DNA of 36,651 nucleotides from positions 1 through 36,651 of the forward strand of contig JAICSS010000024.1 in assembly GCA_025936755.1 (NCBI GenBank), given 5' to 3'. The notes under the pieces are model-generated. The model was not told where the DNA came from. It was given only the letters and a program-made list of their open reading frames with translations, and did no database searches. Below are positions 24,883-32,006 of the stretch, piece after piece. Numbering within the stretch: the first letter of the stretch is position 1; every line of letters starts with the position of its first letter. This stretch comes from Solirubrobacterales bacterium (GTDB lineage Bacteria > Actinomycetota > Thermoleophilia > Solirubrobacterales > 70-9). The position numbers and the translations under genes are program-made.

Positions 24883-25290
24883 CGTCTCTCAATTGCCTCG
24901 GGGTCGGCCTTGCCCATGCGCTAATGGTGGCTGACGGGAAACTTTGACTCCCGCTTCAGGCTGACGGCGGCACAGGTCCGCGTCGAGGGGAATATGCACC
25001 AACGCAGCGGGCTTTGCATGGAGCTAGGCGGATTCGAACCGCCGACCTCCTGGGTGCGATTTACGCCGCTGGTTCTCTGCGGGTCGCGCGAATCCCGCAT
25101 GACAAGTGGGCTTGCGCCGCTCGCGATTCGCCACCGACCGCGCCCGATATGCGCGGATATGTGGCGATTGTCGGGCCATCTCGGGTTAAGTCCCTCGGTA
25201 AGAACCTGCTGATCATGGTTGGCGGGGTACCATGACTCTTTTGTCGTGAGAGGGGTTATCGGGCGTTGGCCCCTGCGATCATCGTCTTAG
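24883..25290. other. gene-free stretch containing the left island end
   Basis: This 408-base gap lies between the COG4280-like gene and the first island gene. It contains the left 43-bp tRNA repeat (25018-25060). To the left is ordinary intergenic chromosome. To the right are about 230 bases of lower-GC sequence without a convincing gene or integrase remnant. Open frames through the repeat are antisense tRNA artefacts. Confidence 0.6.
25018..25060 (-). repeat. attL: 43-bp copy of the tRNA-Ala(CGC) 3' half
   Basis: The 43 bases are identical to 29361-29403, which span the anticodon loop to the 3' end of tRNA-Ala(CGC) plus one flanking base. Identity stops abruptly on both sides. A 3' tRNA fragment facing an intact tRNA across a stretch of foreign-looking genes is the usual footprint of tyrosine-recombinase integration. 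Confidence 0.85.
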
Positions 25291-25809
25291 ATGAGCGAAA
25301 AGGCGCCCAACAGAGAATGGGAAGAAGTCGTCGCCAAGCTTCCGCGCCATCTCAAGGCGCTTCTGGCTTGTGAGGTTTTCGGCCGCGGCCCGGGACGAAA
25401 GCCGCCGCCCCGTGAGCACGGCGTATATCTGTTCACCGAGGCTGGCCGCCATCTTTATGTCGGCCGCTGTGGGCTCACCGAGCGGGCGGCGAGGAAGGGA
25501 GCTGGCCACTCGAACTTCCGCACCAGGCTCGCCGGCCACACTCGCCCTTCCTCTGGCCACAACCAGGCGACGTTCGCCTGGCGGCTCACGATTGAGGCGG
25601 TCGAGGGCCGTTGGGAGGATCTGCCGACTACCCGGTTGGCGCTTGGGCGCGACAGTCGCTTCCTGCAGGAGTTCCTCCGCCAGAAAGAGCGGGTCACCGC
25701 GATGGAGTTCCGGGTGGTGGCGATCGCGGACGATTTCGAGAGCTACGTCTTCGAGCCCTATACGGCGATGATGCTTGATACGCCTTATAACTCCTGGGCA
25801 ACCAGTTGA
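25291..25809 (+). CDS. GIY-YIG-type nuclease
   Basis: A 172-residue protein with a GIY-YIG-like core: HGVYLF (G44-V-Y46) and HLYVGRCG (Y56-V-G58), an arginine-bearing helix SNFRTRLAGH (about 75-83), and the catalytic glutamate candidate E155 in FEPYTAMML with the later N167 in PYNSW. The order and spacing fit the nuclease fold. A poorly conserved 40-residue helical lead precedes the domain. It is the first gene inside the island's left end. Roles from DNA repair to self/non-self restriction are possible and the target is unknown. Confidence 0.72.
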   Translation: MSEKAPNREWEEVVAKLPRHLKALLACEVFGRGPGRKPPPREHGVYLFTEAGRHLYVGRCGLTERAARKGAGHSNFRTRLAGHTRPSSGHNQATFAWRLTIEAVEGRWEDLPTTRLALGRDSRFLQEFLRQKERVTAMEFRVVAIADDFESYVFEPYTAMMLDTPYNSWATS

Positions 25810-25826
25810 AGGCTGCCAGCCAACCT

Positions 25827-25970
25827 TCAGCGAGATTCGCCCACTTCCTCCAAGCGCCACTTGGGCTTGCCGCAAATGTCGGCGACCGCCTCGCAGATGA
25901 GTAGTAGGTTAAGCGCGGCCCAGATGCGCTGCGAGATTCCGCCATCCGAGGGGCCTCGCGCAAAGTTCCG
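25827..25970 (-). pseudogene. possible C-terminal gene remnant
   Basis: On the minus strand, 47 sense codons are open between two stops, and the conceptual peptide looks protein-like (SDGGISQRIWAALNLLLICE, then AVADICGKPKWRLEEVGESR). No in-frame start is present and a TGA immediately precedes it. It may be the broken end of an older island gene. The call is weak because a 144-base open frame can occur by chance. Confidence 0.25.
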
Positions 25971-25992
25971 TCATATGGCGCCGTCATATTTT
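25968..25992 (+). promoter_or_regulatory. CCGTCATAT direct repeats and -10-like TATTTT
   Basis: CCGTCATAT occurs at 25968-25976 and again at 25981-25989, 13 bp apart, with GGCGCC between. TATTTT (25987-25992) fits a TANNNT -10 box and ends 5 bp before the TTG start at 25998. The layout suggests a regulated, possibly leaderless promoter for the operon encoding the XRE-ImmA protein, which is the natural candidate to bind the repeats. Confidence 0.4.
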
Positions 25993-25997
25993 GCATC

Positions 25998-26570
25998 TTG
26001 ATCCAGCGCGAAGAAGCCATCCCGCTGCTTCAGCCCTTGGCCAAGCCGACGCTTGAGGCGTTCGCCAGTGCGCAGGCGACCACCCAGCGGATGCGGGAGG
26101 CAGCGGGTTCTGATCTGATCTTGCTCGATAGAGGCGTGGCGGGAATAGTCCACGGCGTCGACTTTTGGGGCTTCTTCGCAGGGCATCTCCAGAAGAACCT
26201 TCAAGGGCTCGCGACTCGCGATGCGAGTACCTCCGACCAGCGACATCGCTGGCTAATCGCCGAGGGCGCCGTCTGTATTCACCTCAAAAGCAATGTCGAC
26301 CTACTCTGCAACGAGCAGTTGACGCTCGATCATTTCCCCGATGTCGGGACGAGCGGCCAGCCCGCACTTGTCGCGCTGACCTGGACGCACCTGGGCGTGG
26401 ACCGCTACCACCCGACCTTCGTCCACCTTGAGGAAGGATCGCCTAAGTGGGAGATACCCCTGAAGGAGCTCGCCGAGTCGAACCTCCGGGTCCTTAGACC
26501 TCAGGTGCCGAATCCGGTCATACGTTTACGGCGACGCCGCGGCCAGGAATCAGCGGGCGGCGTCGAGTAA
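25998..26570 (+). CDS. unknown protein paired with XRE-ImmA
   Basis: A 190-residue protein I do not recognise. It looks soluble, with segments such as SDLILLDRGVAGIVHGVDFW, DQRHRWLIAEGAVCIHLKSN, DHFPDVGTSGQPALVALTWT and the basic end VIRLRRRRGQES. The TTG at 25998 is a tentative start supported by the promoter-like sequence before it; an ATG at 26091 would give a protein 31 residues shorter. Its stop is 3 bases before the ATG of the XRE-ImmA gene, so the two are an operon. Paired with a regulator-protease, it could be a toxin, a partner, or a substrate of the peptidase. Confidence 0.6.
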   Translation: MIQREEAIPLLQPLAKPTLEAFASAQATTQRMREAAGSDLILLDRGVAGIVHGVDFWGFFAGHLQKNLQGLATRDASTSDQRHRWLIAEGAVCIHLKSNVDLLCNEQLTLDHFPDVGTSGQPALVALTWTHLGVDRYHPTFVHLEEGSPKWEIPLKELAESNLRVLRPQVPNPVIRLRRRRGQESAGGVE

Positions 26571-26573
26571 CAG

Positions 26574-27662
26574 ATGTTCAACGCCGCGTTCTTACGAGTC
26601 GCCCGGGAGGCGATCGGTCTCACGCAGGCCGAAACGGCTGCCAGGTCAGGGATAGACCAGGCTGAGATATCTCGCTGGGAGCGCGGGATGAGGGAGCCGT
26701 CCGCCGGCCAGGTCTCGGCTCTCGCCGATGTACTCGATATCTCGCCGAGGCTTCTGGTGGAGCCAATGGCGGTCGCCGTGCCCGTGCACCGATCGGCCAG
26801 GGTGGAATCGAAGCGGGTCCAGCGTCGTGCGAACGGGAGGCTAGAGCTCGCGCGGATCGCCGCCGAACGTGTGCTTGCCGACATCGATATCGATGCGCCC
26901 TTCCGGTTCCCGACGCTTGCGGAACCCGGTCCGACGGACCCGGAACGGGCGGCAGACTCCGTGAGGAGGGTCTGGCGAATTCCAGACGGCCCACTGCCTC
27001 AGATTTCTGCCTATCTCGAGTCGGCCGGCGCGACTGTGCTCTCGGTTGACTTCGGGACGGAAGCGATCATCGCTGCCTATACGCAGCTTGCGGGTAACGG
27101 CCGATGGTTCTTCCTGAACACCGCGGTCGACGATGCAGCTCGAGGTCGGTTCAGCCTCGCCCATGAGCTCGGGCACGCAATCCTCCATTGGGATCGGTTC
27201 GACGCCCCGGTGGCGACGGATGCCGAGCGGGAGGCTCACCTTTTCGCCGCCTCCTTGCTCATGCCGAGGCACGACATCTGCGCCGAGTTCGCCGCATCTT
27301 CGATGTCACTGGTCGAGTTGGTCCAGATCGGCGAGCGGTGGGGCGTTAGCCCACAGGCCCTCGTCATGCGCGCAGCTAGCTTGGATCTGATCACCTCAAG
27401 CAGGAAGTCACGTCTCTTCGCACAACTGAACGCCCGTGGGCTCCTGCGCAGTGGTCTGTCGTCGATCCAGCGCGATGAGCCGCGACTCTTTCGTGATGCG
27501 TTGAGGTTGCAGCGGGTGGAGAATGGCTATGCGGACGGAGAGCTGGCTGAGGTGATCGGCCTCCCGCTCGATCGACTCCAGGACCTGCTTCCCGATTACT
27601 TTGCCCCGGACGCAGGACCCCGGCTAAAGCTGGTCGGAGCTGTCCGCGCGGGTGGTGTCTAG
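26574..27662 (+). CDS. XRE-family regulator fused to ImmA/IrrE metallopeptidase
   Basis: A 362-residue fusion. Residues 1-65 are an XRE helix-turn-helix (REAIGLTQAETAARSGIDQA, EISRWERGMREPSAGQ). Residues about 140-270 are an M78 ImmA/IrrE zinc peptidase with RFSLAHELGHAILH (H197, E198, H201) and the third-ligand helix EREAHLFAASLLMP near E218-E220. ImmA-type proteases cleave repressors to switch mobile elements on; fused forms also regulate toxin-antitoxin and stress modules. It follows the unknown protein by 3 bp and its end overlaps the convergent membrane protein gene by 4 bp. It is probably the regulator of the island operon. Confidence 0.88.
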   Translation: MFNAAFLRVAREAIGLTQAETAARSGIDQAEISRWERGMREPSAGQVSALADVLDISPRLLVEPMAVAVPVHRSARVESKRVQRRANGRLELARIAAERVLADIDIDAPFRFPTLAEPGPTDPERAADSVRRVWRIPDGPLPQISAYLESAGATVLSVDFGTEAIIAAYTQLAGNGRWFFLNTAVDDAARGRFSLAHELGHAILHWDRFDAPVATDAEREAHLFAASLLMPRHDICAEFAASSMSLVELVQIGERWGVSPQALVMRAASLDLITSSRKSRLFAQLNARGLLRSGLSSIQRDEPRLFRDALRLQRVENGYADGELAEVIGLPLDRLQDLLPDYFAPDAGPRLKLVGAVRAGGV

Positions 27663-28192
27663 GCTCCGACCGTGGTGTCCGTCGGGCCCTGACCGCGACC
27701 GCGGCTCGGATCGTCCGGCTCGTCGGCGTGTCTGAGAACTAGCCAGAAGGTCACCCCCGCGGCGAGCAGGGCCAGGACGGTCGTGGCCGCGCAGGCGAGG
27801 ACAATCTGCTCAAGCCATTCGATGCCGATGACGCCATTATCGGCGGCCGCGGCGACATGTGCACCGACGAGGGCGAGGAGGGCAAGGAGACCTACCATCA
27901 ACAGGAGTCCCTGTAGTCGAGGCCAGGTATCGCTATCGCGTAGGTCGGCGATCGCCGGTCGGTCGGGCAGCGCGAGGAGGATTGCCAACACCGTGAGCGA
28001 GATCCCGAGCAGGGCGACTGCAGTCGCCGCGATTTGGCCGTAGAGGGTCAATCTCGCTTCGGATTCGGCGCGCGCAAGGAGGAGTGGTCCGTCGTGGACG
28101 GCCGACCAGATGTGAAGGCCCCCGAAGACGACGAGGGCTACGATCAGCGTTGCCGCGACCGGATGGTCGTCAGCCCATCGGAGGATCGGCAC
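27659..28192 (-). CDS. four-helix membrane protein, RexB-like
   Basis: A 177-residue protein with four membrane helices: about 13-29 (ATLIVALVVFGGLHIW), 52-73 (IAATAVALLGISLTVLAILL), 93-114 (LLLMVGLLALLALVGAHV) and 128-150 (LACAATTVLALLAAGVTFWL). It starts one base after the stop of the upstream cytosolic protein gene, so the two form an operon. Lambda RexB is also a small four-helix inner-membrane protein encoded directly after rexA, and forms a depolarising channel. The similarity here is architectural only. An unrelated small membrane effector is the alternative. Confidence 0.6.
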   Translation of the reverse strand: MPILRWADDHPVAATLIVALVVFGGLHIWSAVHDGPLLLARAESEARLTLYGQIAATAVALLGISLTVLAILLALPDRPAIADLRDSDTWPRLQGLLLMVGLLALLALVGAHVAAAADNGVIGIEWLEQIVLACAATTVLALLAAGVTFWLVLRHADEPDDPSRGRGQGPTDTTVGA

Positions 28193-28193
28193 G

Positions 28194-29117
28194 TCACCCT
28201 TCGTCGAGGGAGAGCCGCGCCTCGACTGCGTCTTCCAGTGCCCCGGTCTGATCGAGTCCCGACCGGGCGGAGGCTAAGGCGGTGAACACCCTTGCCTGAT
28301 CCGGCAGGCTCGGGTTCACGGTGTCACTTTCGAGGTTGCGCTCGACGTGGAGACGCTCGGAAAGGAGGTTGACCTTGACCGACTTTTTCTTACCGGTGGC
28401 CGTCTTCTCGGTCTTGCTGAGCCCCCGGACAATCAGGCGATCGAAAAACTGCTCCGCGTCGTCCGCGAGTCCGAGGAGCTCCTCTTCGACGTCAGGTTCG
28501 ATGTAGGAGTCCTTCGGCTCCTTCCTGCTCATGCCGACGGCCACGCTGATCGACGGGAACTTACGGCGCGGGATAAGAGATCGCAGCATCCCGCTCTTGC
28601 GTGCTTGGACGATCTTGTGGGACTCGTGGATCGCGAAGTCGACGCCCCTGATCCCCTCGAGGTCCTTCAGGCGGTCGGCGGTCCCCTGGTTGTAGAGCGG
28701 CCGGAAGATCACTCGTTCGCCGGCCTGTCTTCGGAAATAGACGGCGAGCCGACCGAATCCCGGAGAGTTCGTGTGGATGTCGGTCGCGGCGATCTTGTCC
28801 TCCCAGATAAGAACGTGCCCGGTGAATGCCGTATAGCTGCCTTTGCCGATCTGGATGGTCCGGGTACCAACGCCGGGTCCATATTCGCTGGGCCTGCTGC
28901 CAGGACCGTGGAGTGCATGGAGCAGCAGCTTCGTAGGGGCGGTCATCGTGCCGACCGAGACGATCTCGACCGCCGTCAGTTCGTCTTCGCCATGGTCGAG
29001 CACAATCTTGCCTTTGCCGAGGCCCTTAAGGGCGCTGGCGCCCTTGAGACGGTCGAAAGGATGCTTCTGGTTGGTGTCCGCCCAAGCGTAGAAAGTCAAC
29101 CTACGATCAACTGCCAT
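28194..29117 (-). CDS. cytosolic protein, RexA-like candidate
   Basis: A 307-residue soluble protein without a known enzymatic motif. It begins RRLTFYAWADTN. Beta-rich sections follow (YTAFTGHVLIWEDKIAATDI, FGRLAVYFRRQAGERVIFRP), then a KKKSVKVNLLSERL segment and an acidic C-terminus. The start has GGGGAG about seven bases upstream. From memory, lambda RexA also starts with F-Y-A and has GERV...EPL before a beta segment, and it lies immediately before rexB. No alignment was run, so RexA kinship is a hypothesis. It is the first gene of the two-gene minus-strand operon at the island's right end. Confidence 0.55.
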   Translation of the reverse strand: MAVDRRLTFYAWADTNQKHPFDRLKGASALKGLGKGKIVLDHGEDELTAVEIVSVGTMTAPTKLLLHALHGPGSRPSEYGPGVGTRTIQIGKGSYTAFTGHVLIWEDKIAATDIHTNSPGFGRLAVYFRRQAGERVIFRPLYNQGTADRLKDLEGIRGVDFAIHESHKIVQARKSGMLRSLIPRRKFPSISVAVGMSRKEPKDSYIEPDVEEELLGLADDAEQFFDRLIVRGLSKTEKTATGKKKSVKVNLLSERLHVERNLESDTVNPSLPDQARVFTALASARSGLDQTGALEDAVEARLSLDEG

Positions 29118-29153
29118 CTGTACTCCCCTGCTTTCCCTGGGATCAGTCCGGTT

Positions 29154-29174
29154 TTCGAGCCGCCGACCTCATGG
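29154..29174 (-). repeat. degenerate third tRNA 3'-half fragment
   Basis: These 21 bases match the T-arm/variable-loop part of the 43-bp att repeat at 19 positions (TTCGAgCCGCCGACCTCaTGG on the plus strand). The stem partner half is not preserved. It could be a relic of an earlier integration at the same tRNA, which would make the island composite. Chance similarity is less likely but possible. Confidence 0.4.
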
Positions 29175-29265
29175 TGACAGCCATACCGGCGCCGTACCGA
29201 GAGGCGTAAGACGGGGCCGGCGAGCGGAATCAACCGGCAATCGGGGCCAATCCCCGCATATCCAG

Positions 29266-29292
29266 CCCATCAGGCAGTTTCTGCCTGATGGG
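29266..29292. terminator. perfect 12-bp hairpin with TTT loop
   Basis: CCCATCAGGCAG (29266-29277) and CTGCCTGATGGG (29281-29292) pair perfectly around a 3-base loop. No T-run follows, so it may be a weak terminator or a recombination/arm-type site near the island's right end rather than a classical terminator. Confidence 0.45.
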
Positions 29293-29360
29293 GAGCGGCA
29301 TTTGGGTCTCGGTTAAACGGTCGCCGAAACCCGATCTTGCGACATGCGGGGGTTTCGCCG

Positions 29361-29403
29361 ATGGAGCTAGGCGGATTCGAACCGCCGACCTCCTGGGTGC
29401 GAT
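29361..29403 (-). repeat. attR within intact tRNA-Ala(CGC)
   Basis: Right copy of the 43-bp direct repeat, identical to 25018-25060. It covers the anticodon loop through the 3' end of the tRNA gene plus one flanking base. Confidence 0.85.
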
Positions 29404-29434
29404 CCAGGCGCTCTGCCAGCTGAGCTATAGCCCC
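29362..29434 (-). tRNA. tRNA-Ala(CGC)
   Basis: Seventy-three bases fold as a full cloverleaf on the minus strand. The acceptor stem GGGGCTA/TAGCTCC includes the G3:U70 pair that identifies alanine tRNAs, the D arm is GCTC/GAGC, the anticodon stem CCTGG/CCAGG holds loop ATCGCAC (anticodon CGC), and the T arm is GGCGG/CCGCC with loop TTCGAAT. CCA is not encoded. The 3' half is duplicated at 25018-25060. Confidence 0.95.
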
Positions 29435-29526: not shown

Positions 29527-30411
29527 ATGAGCATTCTCGACGACGCAATCCGAGAGCATTTGGAACTGAAGCGCGCCCATGGCGCGGACGAGTCCGAGGT
29601 CAAACGGCTCGAGGACGAGGCGTTCGGGCCTCCGGGCCGGCCGGACGAGCCCGACCCGCTGGCCGAGGCGCCGACCGAGTTCATGATTACGCCGGAGGCG
29701 GAGGCCGCCCAGGCCGAGGAGTCGGGCGGGCGCCGCATCAACATCGCCGATCTGCAGGAGCCCCCGCCCGCCGACGCGCCGGCCGAGGACGCGGCCCAGG
29801 CGGCACCGCCGGCCGAGGAGGAGCCGCCGGCGCTGGAGCACGAGATCGTCCCCGAGCCCACGGCGGCAGAGCCCGAGCCCGAGGAGCCGGTCGCCGAGGC
29901 CGGCCCCTCGACCGAAGAGCGGCACGCGATCGCCGAGCAGCCGACCGAGTTCTTCGACGTCGAGGCCGAGATGGGGACCGAGGACGCGCCCGCCGTCGAG
30001 GCGCCCAGCCCCTCCGACGAGGAGATCGTCGAGGCCGAGGCCGTCGAGCCGCCGCTCGCCCCGGTCGAACCGGCCACCGAGATCCACGCCTCCCGCGCCG
30101 AGGCGCCCGCCGAGGACGTCATCGACGAGGAGGAAGAGGACGAGGACTTCTGGAGCGACCAGCGCCTCTCCGACGAGCTCGACCAGGCGCTCGAGGCGCC
30201 GCTCGCCGCGGAGGACGAGGAGGCCGAAGAGATCTCCGAGGAGGAGCCCTCCGAGGAGCACGAGCAACCGCGGCCGGCGGCGAATTACGACCCCGACACC
30301 GGCCACGAGGACGTGCTCGAGGACACCCCCGAGTTCCTCGAGGACGCCCCGGAGGACGACGAGCTCTGGTTCGAGCAGAAGCCTCCGAAGGACTTCGACT
30401 TCGACGACTAA
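29527..30411 (+). CDS. very acidic, probably disordered protein
   Basis: A 294-residue protein starting at the ATG at 29527 (MSILDDAIREHLELKRAHGA). The upstream in-frame TTG lies against the tRNA and is unlikely. The first ~45 residues form a charged amphipathic helix (DESEVKRLEDEAFGPPGRP). The remainder is dominated by Glu, Asp, Pro and Ala with runs such as EEEEDEDFW, and carries repeated PTEF motifs (APTEFM, QPTEFF). The end is ELWFEQKPPKDFDFDD. Only the N-terminal helix and the aromatic-acidic C-terminus look conserved-type; I recall similar proteins in Thermoleophilia. No function can be assigned. It is bracketed by two tRNA-Ala genes on the other strand. Confidence 0.75.
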   Translation: MSILDDAIREHLELKRAHGADESEVKRLEDEAFGPPGRPDEPDPLAEAPTEFMITPEAEAAQAEESGGRRINIADLQEPPPADAPAEDAAQAAPPAEEEPPALEHEIVPEPTAAEPEPEEPVAEAGPSTEERHAIAEQPTEFFDVEAEMGTEDAPAVEAPSPSDEEIVEAEAVEPPLAPVEPATEIHASRAEAPAEDVIDEEEEDEDFWSDQRLSDELDQALEAPLAAEDEEAEEISEEEPSEEHEQPRPAANYDPDTGHEDVLEDTPEFLEDAPEDDELWFEQKPPKDFDFDD

Positions 30412-30424
30412 GAGTTCACAAAGT

Positions 30425-30444
30425 TGGCGCAGTTCTGTGCGCCA
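30425..30444. promoter_or_regulatory. inverted repeat TGGCGCA-6-TGCGCCA
   Basis: A 7-bp perfect inverted repeat with a 6-base loop lies 13 bases after the stop of the acidic protein and 33 bases before the endonuclease ATG. It could end the first transcript or be an operator for the second. No T-run follows. Confidence 0.3.
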
Positions 30445-30477
30445 CGCGTGAATTGTTTTGTCGTAGGCTCGGGAGCG

Positions 30478-30975
30478 ATGGCTCCCTTGAAGAAGAAAGG
30501 CGACCTCGCGGAGCTGAAGGTTGCCGCCGACCTCATCGATCGCGGCTGTCGACTCTCTATCCCCTTTGGCGAGGACTGCGACTATGACCTGATCGCAGAC
30601 TACGAAGGTCGGCTACATCGGGTGCAGGTCAAGCACAGCACTTCGGACGGCCACATCATCGTGGTCCGCTGCCGCTCCCATTCGCTCACGAAGGGGAAAG
30701 TGCGGTTCGTCAAGCGATACACCGCCGCCATGGTGGACTGGATTGCCGCCTACGACTGCACGACCGAGTGCTGCTACTACCTCCCGTCGAGGGAGCTGGG
30801 AGATGGACGCAACACCTTGACCCTGCGTCTGCAGCCCGCTCGGAACAACCAGCAGGCTGGGATTCGAAACGCCGGGGACTACCTTCACCCCGACTTTGGC
30901 GTCGATCCTGGGATGGAGCCAGCCGGGATCGAACCGGCGACCTTTCGCGTGCAAGGCGAACGCTCTGCCAGCTGA
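30478..30975 (+). CDS. PD-(D/E)XK endonuclease, group I intron-homing type
   Basis: A 165-residue protein of the PD-(D/E)XK family related to I-Ssp6803I-type homing endonucleases (PF11645 style). The helix LKKKGDLAELKVAADLIDRG (with E12), CDYDLIAD (D37) and LHRVQVKHS (Q50, K52) make the nuclease core. The ATG at 30478 follows GGGAG. The last ~20 residues (from residue ~146) are translated from the antisense strand of tRNA-Ala(TGC) and the stop lies within the tRNA gene, so the native C-terminus was probably replaced or lost. No intron is visible nearby. It may be a stray homing nuclease or the remains of a small element that entered at this tRNA's 3' end. Confidence 0.75.
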   Translation: MAPLKKKGDLAELKVAADLIDRGCRLSIPFGEDCDYDLIADYEGRLHRVQVKHSTSDGHIIVVRCRSHSLTKGKVRFVKRYTAAMVDWIAAYDCTTECCYYLPSRELGDGRNTLTLRLQPARNNQQAGIRNAGDYLHPDFGVDPGMEPAGIEPATFRVQGERSAS

Positions 30976-30986
30976 GCTATGGCCCC
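30914..30986 (-). tRNA. tRNA-Ala(TGC)
   Basis: Seventy-three bases on the minus strand fold as tRNA-Ala. The acceptor stem GGGGCCA/TGGCTCC keeps the G3:U70 identity pair, the anticodon stem TTCGC/GCGAA holds loop CTTGCAC (anticodon TGC), and the T arm is GCCGG/CCGGC with loop TTCGATC. CCA is not encoded. The endonuclease gene on the other strand runs into its 3' half. Confidence 0.95.
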
Positions 30987-31034
30987 ACTCCCTTGATTGT
31001 AGGCGGACATAGCCGACCCGCAGAGGTCGAACGT

Positions 31035-32006
31035 CTAGCTCGCCAGCAGGCTCTCCGCCCGCTTACCCTCCGGCAGGTTCTGATCGGCGTGGTAGCTGGA
31101 CCGCACCAGGGGGCCGGCAGCGACGGACTCGAAGCCGAGGTCGTAGGCGGCCCGCTCGAGCGCCGCGAACTCGTCGGGGTGCCAGTAGCGGACCACCGGC
31201 AGGTGGTTCTCGGTCGGGCGCAGGTACTGGCCGACGGTGAGGACCTGGACGTCGTGCTCGCGCAGGAGGCCGAAGGTCTCGACCATCTCCTCGAAGGACT
31301 CGCCGAGGCCGACCATCAGCCCGGACTTGGTGACGACCTCGTCCCCGCCCATCTCCTTCGCCATCCGCAGCACCCGGGCCGAGCGTAGGAACTGGGAGCC
31401 GCGGCGGGCGATCGGGTAGAGGCGCGGCACCGTCTCGACGTTGTGGTTGAAGACGTCGGGCCGCTCGTGGACGACCTTGGCCAGCGGCATCTCCTGGCCG
31501 CGGAAGTCGGGGGTGAGGATCTCGACCTTGCACCCGGGCGCCAGCATCCGGATCGAGCGGATGACGCCGACGAAGGCGCTCGCCCCGTAGTCGGGCAGGT
31601 CGTCGCGGTCGACCGAGGTGACGACGGCGTGGCGCAGCCCCATCGCCTTCACCTGGTTCGCCACCCGCAGCGGCTCCAGCGGGTCGTTCCAGGTCGGCTT
31701 GCCGGTCTGCACGTTGCAGAAGCCGCACCGCCGCGTGCAGACGTCGCCGAGGATCATGAAGGTCGCCGTGCCGCGCTCCCAGCACTCGCCGACGTTCGGG
31801 CAGTTGGCCTCCTCGCAGACGGTGTGGAGGTTGTCGCTGCCGATCTTCTCCTTCAGGCGCCGGTAGTTGGGCCCGCCCGGCGCCGGCACCTTCAGCCACG
31901 GCGGCTTGCGGGCGCGGCGGAAGGGGACGGTCCCCTCGCTCTCGGCGGCGGTCCCGCCCGGCTTGGCGCGGGAGCGGGTGACGTGGATGCGGTCGGCGCC
32001 GGACAC
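31035..32006 (-). CDS. lipA: lipoyl synthase
   Basis: A 323-residue radical-SAM enzyme that inserts two sulfurs into octanoyl groups on lipoyl domains. Both iron-sulfur sites are complete: the auxiliary cluster motif CEEANCPNVGEC and the radical-SAM motif CTRRCGFC. The C-terminal RSSYHAD supplies the serine ligand of the auxiliary cluster. TSVDRDDLPDYGASAF and NHNVETVPRLY are further family marks. A GTG start is used; the basic 30-residue N-terminus is common in actinobacterial LipA. It works after LipB, encoded upstream on the same strand beyond the beta-helix gene. Confidence 0.97.
   Translation of the reverse strand: MSGADRIHVTRSRAKPGGTAAESEGTVPFRRARKPPWLKVPAPGGPNYRRLKEKIGSDNLHTVCEEANCPNVGECWERGTATFMILGDVCTRRCGFCNVQTGKPTWNDPLEPLRVANQVKAMGLRHAVVTSVDRDDLPDYGASAFVGVIRSIRMLAPGCKVEILTPDFRGQEMPLAKVVHERPDVFNHNVETVPRLYPIARRGSQFLRSARVLRMAKEMGGDEVVTKSGLMVGLGESFEEMVETFGLLREHDVQVLTVGQYLRPTENHLPVVRYWHPDEFAALERAAYDLGFESVAAGPLVRSSYHADQNLPEGKRAESLLAS

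What the first reader, a model, noticed from the sequence alone, without database searches (positions are those of the whole stretch)
25018..29403. A 4.4-kb defence-type island in tRNA-Ala(CGC) with clean att repeats but no integrase
The 43-bp direct repeat covers exactly anticodon loop to 3' end, the standard footprint of tyrosine-recombinase integration, and the intact tRNA is reconstituted on one side. The cargo is a nuclease, a regulator-peptidase pair and a RexAB-like pair, with no mobilisation gene. An element this small with perfect repeats suggests a satellite that borrows an integrase, or recent loss of one.
Basis: partly seen in the sequence, partly recalled or inferred. Interest (0 to 1): 0.85.

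Follow-up and report, generated by a model that had tools for sequence, protein, structure and literature searches.

The report
Integrase-less defence cassette in tRNA-Ala
A small block of likely anti-virus genes sits in a bacterial tRNA gene between two ends that closely match those of a larger mobile element carrying the missing insertion enzyme, which suggests that it moves by borrowing that enzyme.

Summary
The interpretation mostly holds and can be sharpened. In this genus tRNA-Ala(CGC) is an integration hotspot. Thirteen intervals bounded by two repeat copies were found (in 8 of 12 genomes): 5 hold a tyrosine integrase of one clade, 8, this one included, hold none. Elements share their ends rather than their middles. 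Outside the core, both ends of this element are 84% identical to the ends of a 26-kb integrase-bearing element in a congener; the interiors share nothing at DNA level. The window's genome has no integrase of that clade and no second copy of either end. Related ends abut six kinds of tRNA gene in relatives. Cargo: a GIY-YIG-like nuclease, a RosmerTA-like pair and a rare two-gene module; 'RexAB' is unsupported. Best reading: a non-autonomous, CIME-like defence cassette kept compatible with a helper integrase. Excision and transfer are inferred, not shown. Closest known: CIMEs and Dehalococcoides ssrA islands; different here are the end sets shared by elements with different, mostly defensive, cargo.

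The parts
25018..25060 (+). distal att copy (43 bp, 3' part of tRNA-Ala)
   Evidence: 43/43 identical to 29361-29403
25060..25176 (+). left (distal) inner end with arm-like repeats GATATGCGCGGATATGTGGCGATT; the palindrome and TTCGAA box seen in most relatives are missing here
   Evidence: 98/117 identical to the left end of the integrase-bearing G002_B element; 200 letter shuffles reach 24 against a score of 133; alignment A2
25291..25809 (+). GIY-YIG-like nuclease, 172 aa
   Evidence: no Pfam match; tblastn to 9 plasmid records at 33-38% identity, 5 of them annotated GIY-YIG
25998..26570 (+). putative RosmerTA-like toxin, 190 aa (TTG start as called)
   Evidence: no family match; the one relative among 399 genomes of the class (31%) also lies directly before an XRE-M78 gene
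26574..27662 (+). XRE + ImmA/IrrE-type (M78) regulator-peptidase, RmrA-like antitoxin
   Evidence: HTH_3 1.7e-16 and Peptidase_M78 7.1e-16; PADLOC RmrA 1.7e-51
27659..28192 (-). 177-aa protein, membrane-type by eye, partner of the next gene
   Evidence: 39% over 150 aa to the gene next to the 28194-29117 relative in G402
28194..29117 (-). 307-aa orphan protein
   Evidence: 2 of 399 class genomes, itself included; 1 relative found in the genome-contig scan, none in viral contigs
29154..29174 (+). degenerate att-like piece, 90% identical over 21 nt
   Evidence: family D6
29220..29361 (+). right (tRNA-side) inner end: arm-like CCCCGCATATCC, palindrome ATCAGGCAG-TTT-CTGCCTGAT, GGTTAAAC box, TGCGGG box
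   Evidence: 123/146 identical to the right end of G002_B, shuffles reach 22 against 166; leave-one-out E 2.3e-12, lost when both G002 elements are also dropped
29361..29403 (+). tRNA-side att copy
29362..29434 (-). intact tRNA-Ala(CGC)
   Evidence: ARAGORN
29527..32006 (.). conserved right flank (acidic ORF, PD-(D/E)XK protein, LipA) that anchors the locus in congeners
   Evidence: LipA 94-97% identical in G001, G002, G004 and, in part, G010 beside their tRNA-Ala(CGC)

Best explanation
This is a non-autonomous integrative element: a 4.3-kb cassette of defence-type genes between two ends that fit an integrase it does not encode. Shown: exact att repeats, intact tRNA, no integrase in the element, no integrase of the relevant clade in the genome, and both inner ends 84% identical outside the core to those of an integrase-bearing element at the same tRNA in a congener. 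Shown for the genus: a hotspot with tandem arrays in which integrase-bearing and integrase-less elements carry related ends and different middles. Inferred: when an element carrying a clade integrase is present (tandem neighbour or newcomer), its integrase joins the two repeats, excises the cassette as a circle, and can insert it at a tRNA-Ala(CGC); transfer between cells is piggy-backed on that helper or on other means. The cassette persists because it defends the host and carries a toxin-antitoxin-like pair.
For: Repeat and tRNA. Ends against G002_B. Integrase in G002_B, G009_a and G003: Pfam PF00589; two more in G007. 8 of 13 bounded intervals lack PF00589 and PF00239 matches. Leave-one-genome-out, both ends are recognised in 7 of 8 integrase-less elements. 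Integrase-less elements of three genomes share about 830 bp of left end with a PemK-type toxin-antitoxin pair (78-86%) and 170-190 bp of right end (85-88%, core included) around different cargo; a fourth genome has the same left end on a contig that stops there. End searches: right end in 12 of 12 and left end in 10 of 12 genus genomes, one each in G000. Right ends lie within 10 bp of Ala(CGC), Ala(TGC), His, Thr, Gly and Val tRNA genes.
Against: No excision, circle or transfer was observed. This element's left end lacks the palindrome and TTCGAA box of most relatives, so it may be damaged. With both G002 elements left out of training, its left end drops to E 1.3e-4 and its right end is not found: the match rests mainly on one congener. 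Of the three integrase-bearing elements tested leave-one-out, only G002_B has both ends recognised; the right ends of G009_a (no match) and G003 (E 4.6) are not, nor is that of integrase-less G001_C98. Integrase remnants near ends in G005 and G006 show that loss also happens.
Confidence: 0.7

Rival explanations
1. A dead relic: an integrase-bearing element lost its integrase and most genes by deletion, and what is left no longer moves (a CIME that only decays).
For: Left end incomplete; no clade integrase in the genome; integrase remnants in G005:C72 and G006:C90 show decay at this locus; CIMEs are described as decay products (PMC5704250, passages).
Against: No integrase remnant inside; both outer arms kept at 84% with no detectable shared interior; integrase-less elements in several genomes keep end sets around different cargo, which repeated decay alone would not give.
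Confidence: 0.25
2. A phage satellite that is packaged by a helper phage.
For: Small size, tRNA site, defence cargo.
Against: All five genes scanned; PHROG matches are regulator/peptidase types plus weak unknown or holin-like matches (best 0.026) for the 177-aa protein; nothing for capsid, terminase or replication; no relative of the 307-aa gene in viral contigs.
Confidence: 0.03
3. An assembly duplication of the tRNA 3' half.
For: MAG-like assembly of 45 contigs.
Against: The inner sides of both junctions match the junctions of another genome; low GC of the block.
Confidence: 0.02

Closest known systems
CIME (cis-mobilizable element; Streptococcus ICESt1-related islands; PMC5704250, passages)
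   Same: att sites at both sides, no integration or transfer genes, tandem accretion at one target gene.
   Different: CIMEs are defined as decayed ICE/IMEs; here end sets are shared by elements with different cargo, integrase-less elements outnumber the others (8 of 13), and cargo is mostly defence.
Dehalococcoides ssrA genomic islands (PMC3146451, passages and section 10)
   Same: Tandem islands at one RNA gene; 16 with and 15 without an integration module; the authors suggest cis-mobilisation.
   Different: Serine (CcrB-like) recombinase, ssrA target and rdhA cargo there; tyrosine integrase clade, tRNA targets and defence cargo here.
CALINs and MITEs (hitcher elements; PMC11389934, passages)
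   Same: Recombination sites without the enzyme, served by an enzyme encoded elsewhere.
   Different: Not attC cassettes and not inverted-repeat transposons; the ends are tRNA-derived att sites with arm-like repeats.
RosmerTA (PMC10440598, passages)
   Same: RmrA-type HTH-protease antitoxin beside a small partner.
   Different: The partner has no detectable similarity to a described toxin here.
E. coli defence hotspots without recognisable mobility (PMC10121019, passages)
   Same: Defence islands whose mode of movement could not be determined.
   Different: Here the att ends give a concrete candidate mode.

Membership tests
CIME | attL and attR at both sides | tested here: met
   43-bp repeats; conserved inner ends
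CIME | no integration or transfer genes | tested here: met
   five genes, none matching integrase, recombinase or relaxase families
CIME | derived by decay from an ICE or IME | tested here: inconclusive
   ends match an integrase-bearing element, no internal remnant
CIME | mobilised after accretion with a related element | not testable with these tools
   needs excision and transfer assays
phage satellite (PICI, P4-like and others) | integrase and capsid-hijacking or packaging genes | tested here: not met
   no such match among the five genes
RosmerTA | RmrA antitoxin with HTH and ImmA-type protease | tested here: met
   RmrA 1.7e-51; HTH_3 and M78
RosmerTA | adjacent toxin neutralised by RmrA | tested here: inconclusive
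   adjacent 190-aa gene, pair kept in G319; toxicity not tested
RexAB | RexA and RexB homologues | tested here: not met
   no match in Pfam, NCBIfam, PADLOC, PHROGs or PDB sequences; model pLDDT 34 is too poor for a fold comparison
integron cassette / CALIN | attC sites | not tested
   the repeat is a tRNA 3' half; attC folding not examined

The most novel reading that the evidence does not exclude
In this Solirubrobacterales-type lineage a tRNA-targeting integrase clade serves a shared pool of integrase-free 'chassis': standard left and right ends (sometimes with a built-in toxin-antitoxin pair at the left end) around exchangeable defence cargo, so that defence systems move and stack at tRNA genes much as cassettes do in an integron, with the ends, which are matched within an element, deciding which integrase may move which cassette.
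Probability: 0.35. Interest if true: 0.85.

Novelty: new variant of a known kind. Interest (0 to 1): 0.6.

Why it matters
Many defence islands have no visible means of movement; in E. coli hotspot 37, 68% of cases had no detectable mobile element (PMC10121019, passage). Here integrase-less islands carry ends that match integrase-bearing neighbours or congeners, which turns 'how do these islands move' into a two-plasmid recombination test. If true, searches for mobile defence should look for end sequences, not for integrases.

Tried and rejected
RexAB: no family or PDB-sequence match; AlphaFold models of the 307-aa and 190-aa proteins, each from a 2-sequence alignment, have mean pLDDT 34.3 and 42.6, so no fold search was run.

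Empty site in G004: rejected, because its tRNA side carries a right end. No unoccupied tRNA-Ala(CGC) was seen among the 11 intact target genes held for the genus.

Cargo relatives as mobile copies: the loci in G402 and G319 that hold relatives of the 307-aa and 190-aa genes show no recognisable end and no tRNA in 17.7 and 19.9 kb, so they do not show the cassette moving as a unit.

Left flank as a common anchor: of the window's left-hand genes only a few reappear near the arrays, so the original left neighbour was not settled.

Slips in scripts: a name clash made the window unread (its references came out empty; the window was skipped); redone. Half-sites for the pairing test were picked by hand from nine elements, G000 not among them.
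Full report
What is there. The window is a whole contig (C34) of a 2.41-Mb, 45-contig genome. A 43-bp repeat stands at 25018-25060 and 29361-29403. The right copy is part of an intact tRNA-Ala(CGC), 29362-29434 on the minus strand, and the repeat runs from position 32 of the tRNA to its 3' end plus one base. The core occurs nowhere else in the genome with up to 3 mismatches. The block between is the GC low of the contig and holds five called genes.

Cargo. 26574-27662 encodes HTH_3 + Peptidase_M78 and matches PADLOC RmrA at 1.7e-51, the antitoxin type of RosmerTA, in which different toxins pair with RmrA (PMC10440598, passages). The 190-aa gene just before it has no family match; among 399 genomes of the class one relative was found besides itself, and it too precedes an XRE-M78 gene. 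No match in plasmids or phages. 25291-25809 has no Pfam match, but 9 plasmid records hold relatives at 33-38% identity, 5 annotated GIY-YIG. The 307-aa and 177-aa genes form a pair that reappears together in G402. The 307-aa gene was found in 2 of 399 class genomes, itself included, in one record of genome contigs, titled Solirubrobacterales bacterium RYN_259, and not in viral contigs. RexAB is not supported.

Hotspot. Searching the tRNA 3' half in 121 relatives gave more than one copy in 9 of the 11 other genomes of the genus, and mostly one or none elsewhere. The right flank (LipA 94-97%) shows that the loci of G001, G002, G004 and G010 are the same place. Counting intervals bounded by two neighbouring copies on one contig gives 13, in 8 of the 12 genus genomes: G000 1, G001 1, G002 2, G003 1, G006 1, G007 3, G009 3, G011 1. 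Five contain an integrase (PF00589) that is 47-59% identical to, or is, the G002_B integrase. Eight contain no PF00589 or PF00239 match. The integrase-less ones are 4.3, 6.5, 7.0, 7.5, 10.2, 11.3, 11.5 and 18.9 kb long; the others 11.1, 26.2, 35.7 kb and about 58 and 84 kb (positions). The window's genome has three PF00589 proteins elsewhere, one beside tRNA-Pro(GGG) in a shortened frame, and two serine recombinases on contig C6; its best match to the clade integrase is 27.9 bits.

Ends. The DNA just inside the repeats is related between elements. Left end: GATATGCGCGGATATGCGGCGATT-type repeats, then a spaced palindrome (mostly GGGCACT-N10-AGTGCCC), then GGTTCGAA. Right end: the arm-like repeats in the opposite sense, a palindrome (mostly GGGCACTAGTGCCC), GGTTCGAA, and a TTTGCAGG box 15-20 bp from the core. 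For the window: left end 98/117, right end 123/146 identical to G002_B outside the core, with scores of 133 and 166 against maxima of 24 and 22 in 200 letter shuffles. With cores, blastn gives 158 bp at 88% and 186 bp at 88%, and no other DNA match between the two elements. Leave-one-out models without G000 find its left end at E 1.3e-8 and its right end at 2.3e-12; without the two G002 elements as well, the left end falls to 1.3e-4 and the right end is lost. Leave-one-genome-out over all 12 ends of each kind: left 12 of 12 (worst 9.7e-5), right 8 of 12; no right match for G009_a, G001_C98 and G026_a, and E 4.6 for G003. G026_b was dropped before building.

Ends with exchanged middles. G007_C7, G009_b and G011_C2, all without integrase and in three genomes, share about 830 bp at the left, including a PemK-type toxin-antitoxin pair, at 78-86%, and 170-190 bp at the right at 85-88%, around different cargo. 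G008 has the same left end on a contig that stops there. G006_C90 and G009_c share other end sequences. The 58-kb integrase-bearing element next to G007_C7 has ends of 75% (left) and 80% (right) identity to its neighbour, core included. In nine elements with both palindromes, left and right half-sites are more alike within an element than after shuffling (p 0.001); this rests on hand-picked half-sites and mainly on three unusual elements, and G000 could not be included.

Range of the ends. Models of the ends (trained on 12 and 13 sequences, G000 among them) were run on 121 genomes: right end in 25 (12 of 12 in the genus), left end in 34 (10 of 12). G000 has one of each, at this element. In the 30 loci taken from the right-end search, right ends end within 10 bp of the 3' end of tRNA-Ala(CGC), Ala(TGC) (L171), His (L169, L185), Thr (L174), Gly (L179) and Val (L186); further Gly and His cases lie 31-52 bp away. 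So one family of ends goes with several tRNA targets.

Occupied or empty. The TGCAGG box stands at the expected place beside 8 of 11 intact target tRNA genes of the genus, and 11 of 11 with one mismatch allowed; the window has TGCGGG. Beside intact tRNA-Ala genes of other genera, as far as loci were held, it is 0 of 21 exact and 4 of 21 with one mismatch. A second, divergent tRNA-Ala(CGC) in G007 also lacks it. In 19 of these 22 other-genus loci (one of the 22 is a tRNA fragment) the same right-hand ORF follows, so unoccupied-looking orthologous sites exist outside the genus. Outside the outermost copy held, the box reappears in 8 of 8 other arrays (7 exact, 1 with a mismatch) but not in the window: G000 seems to hold a single cassette where relatives hold stacks.

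Other cargo. Of 57 called genes in the seven other integrase-less elements, 30 were scanned with Pfam and 10 with PADLOC. Matches include SIR2 + HerA (5.6e-70 and 1.4e-152) with a cytosine methylase (G009_c), SIR2-AAA (G002_A), a BsuBI/PstI-type endonuclease beside an SMC-like ATPase (G011), a GajB-like UvrD helicase with an XRE-M78 gene (G007), TacA-GNAT and DUF559-type nucleases (G006), ResIII, PIN and PemK (G009_b). G001_C98 is an exception: of its two scanned genes one is a thiamine-pyrophosphate enzyme and the other has no match. So 7 of 8 integrase-less elements carry at least one defence or toxin-antitoxin type gene.

How it most likely works. A helper integrase of the clade recombines the two repeats and excises a circle in which right end, core and left end come together; the same enzyme inserts it at a tRNA-Ala(CGC) 3' end. 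G003's integrase-bearing element also has a Replic_Relax protein, a hint that some helpers may transfer by conjugation (inference). Shown: anatomy, shared ends, missing enzyme. Inferred: recognition, excision, transfer, defence.

Known relatives. CIMEs and Dehalococcoides ssrA islands are the nearest described kinds. Paper searches for integrase-less, tRNA-borne, tandem or Solirubrobacterales/Thermoleophilia cases (listings only, apart from the papers named) showed no description of these ends. The library holds open-licence papers only, so this is not proof of absence.

Noticed in passing
window 29154-29174: A 21-nt piece, 90% identical to the T-arm part of the repeat, lies inside the right end; perhaps a vestige of an older att site.
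   Followed up: partly
L058:15920-18877 (G002): The clade integrase of G002_B has a C-terminal Mrr_N domain, and two small genes behind it resemble that C-terminal part.
   Followed up: no
G007:C7, L061 4751-5122: Two tRNA-Ala(CGC) genes lie 226 bp apart, one the att target, one divergent.
   Followed up: partly
L003 (G000:C26) 1447-2955: A shortened tyrosine integrase frame lies beside a tRNA-Pro(GGG) in the window's own genome.
   Followed up: no
G005:C72:4178-4294 and G006:C90:2057-2200: Short integrase remnants of the clade lie near repeat copies, a sign of decay in arrays.
   Followed up: no
L067 (G001:C98): An integrase-less interval whose scanned cargo includes a thiamine-pyrophosphate enzyme instead of defence genes.
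   Followed up: partly
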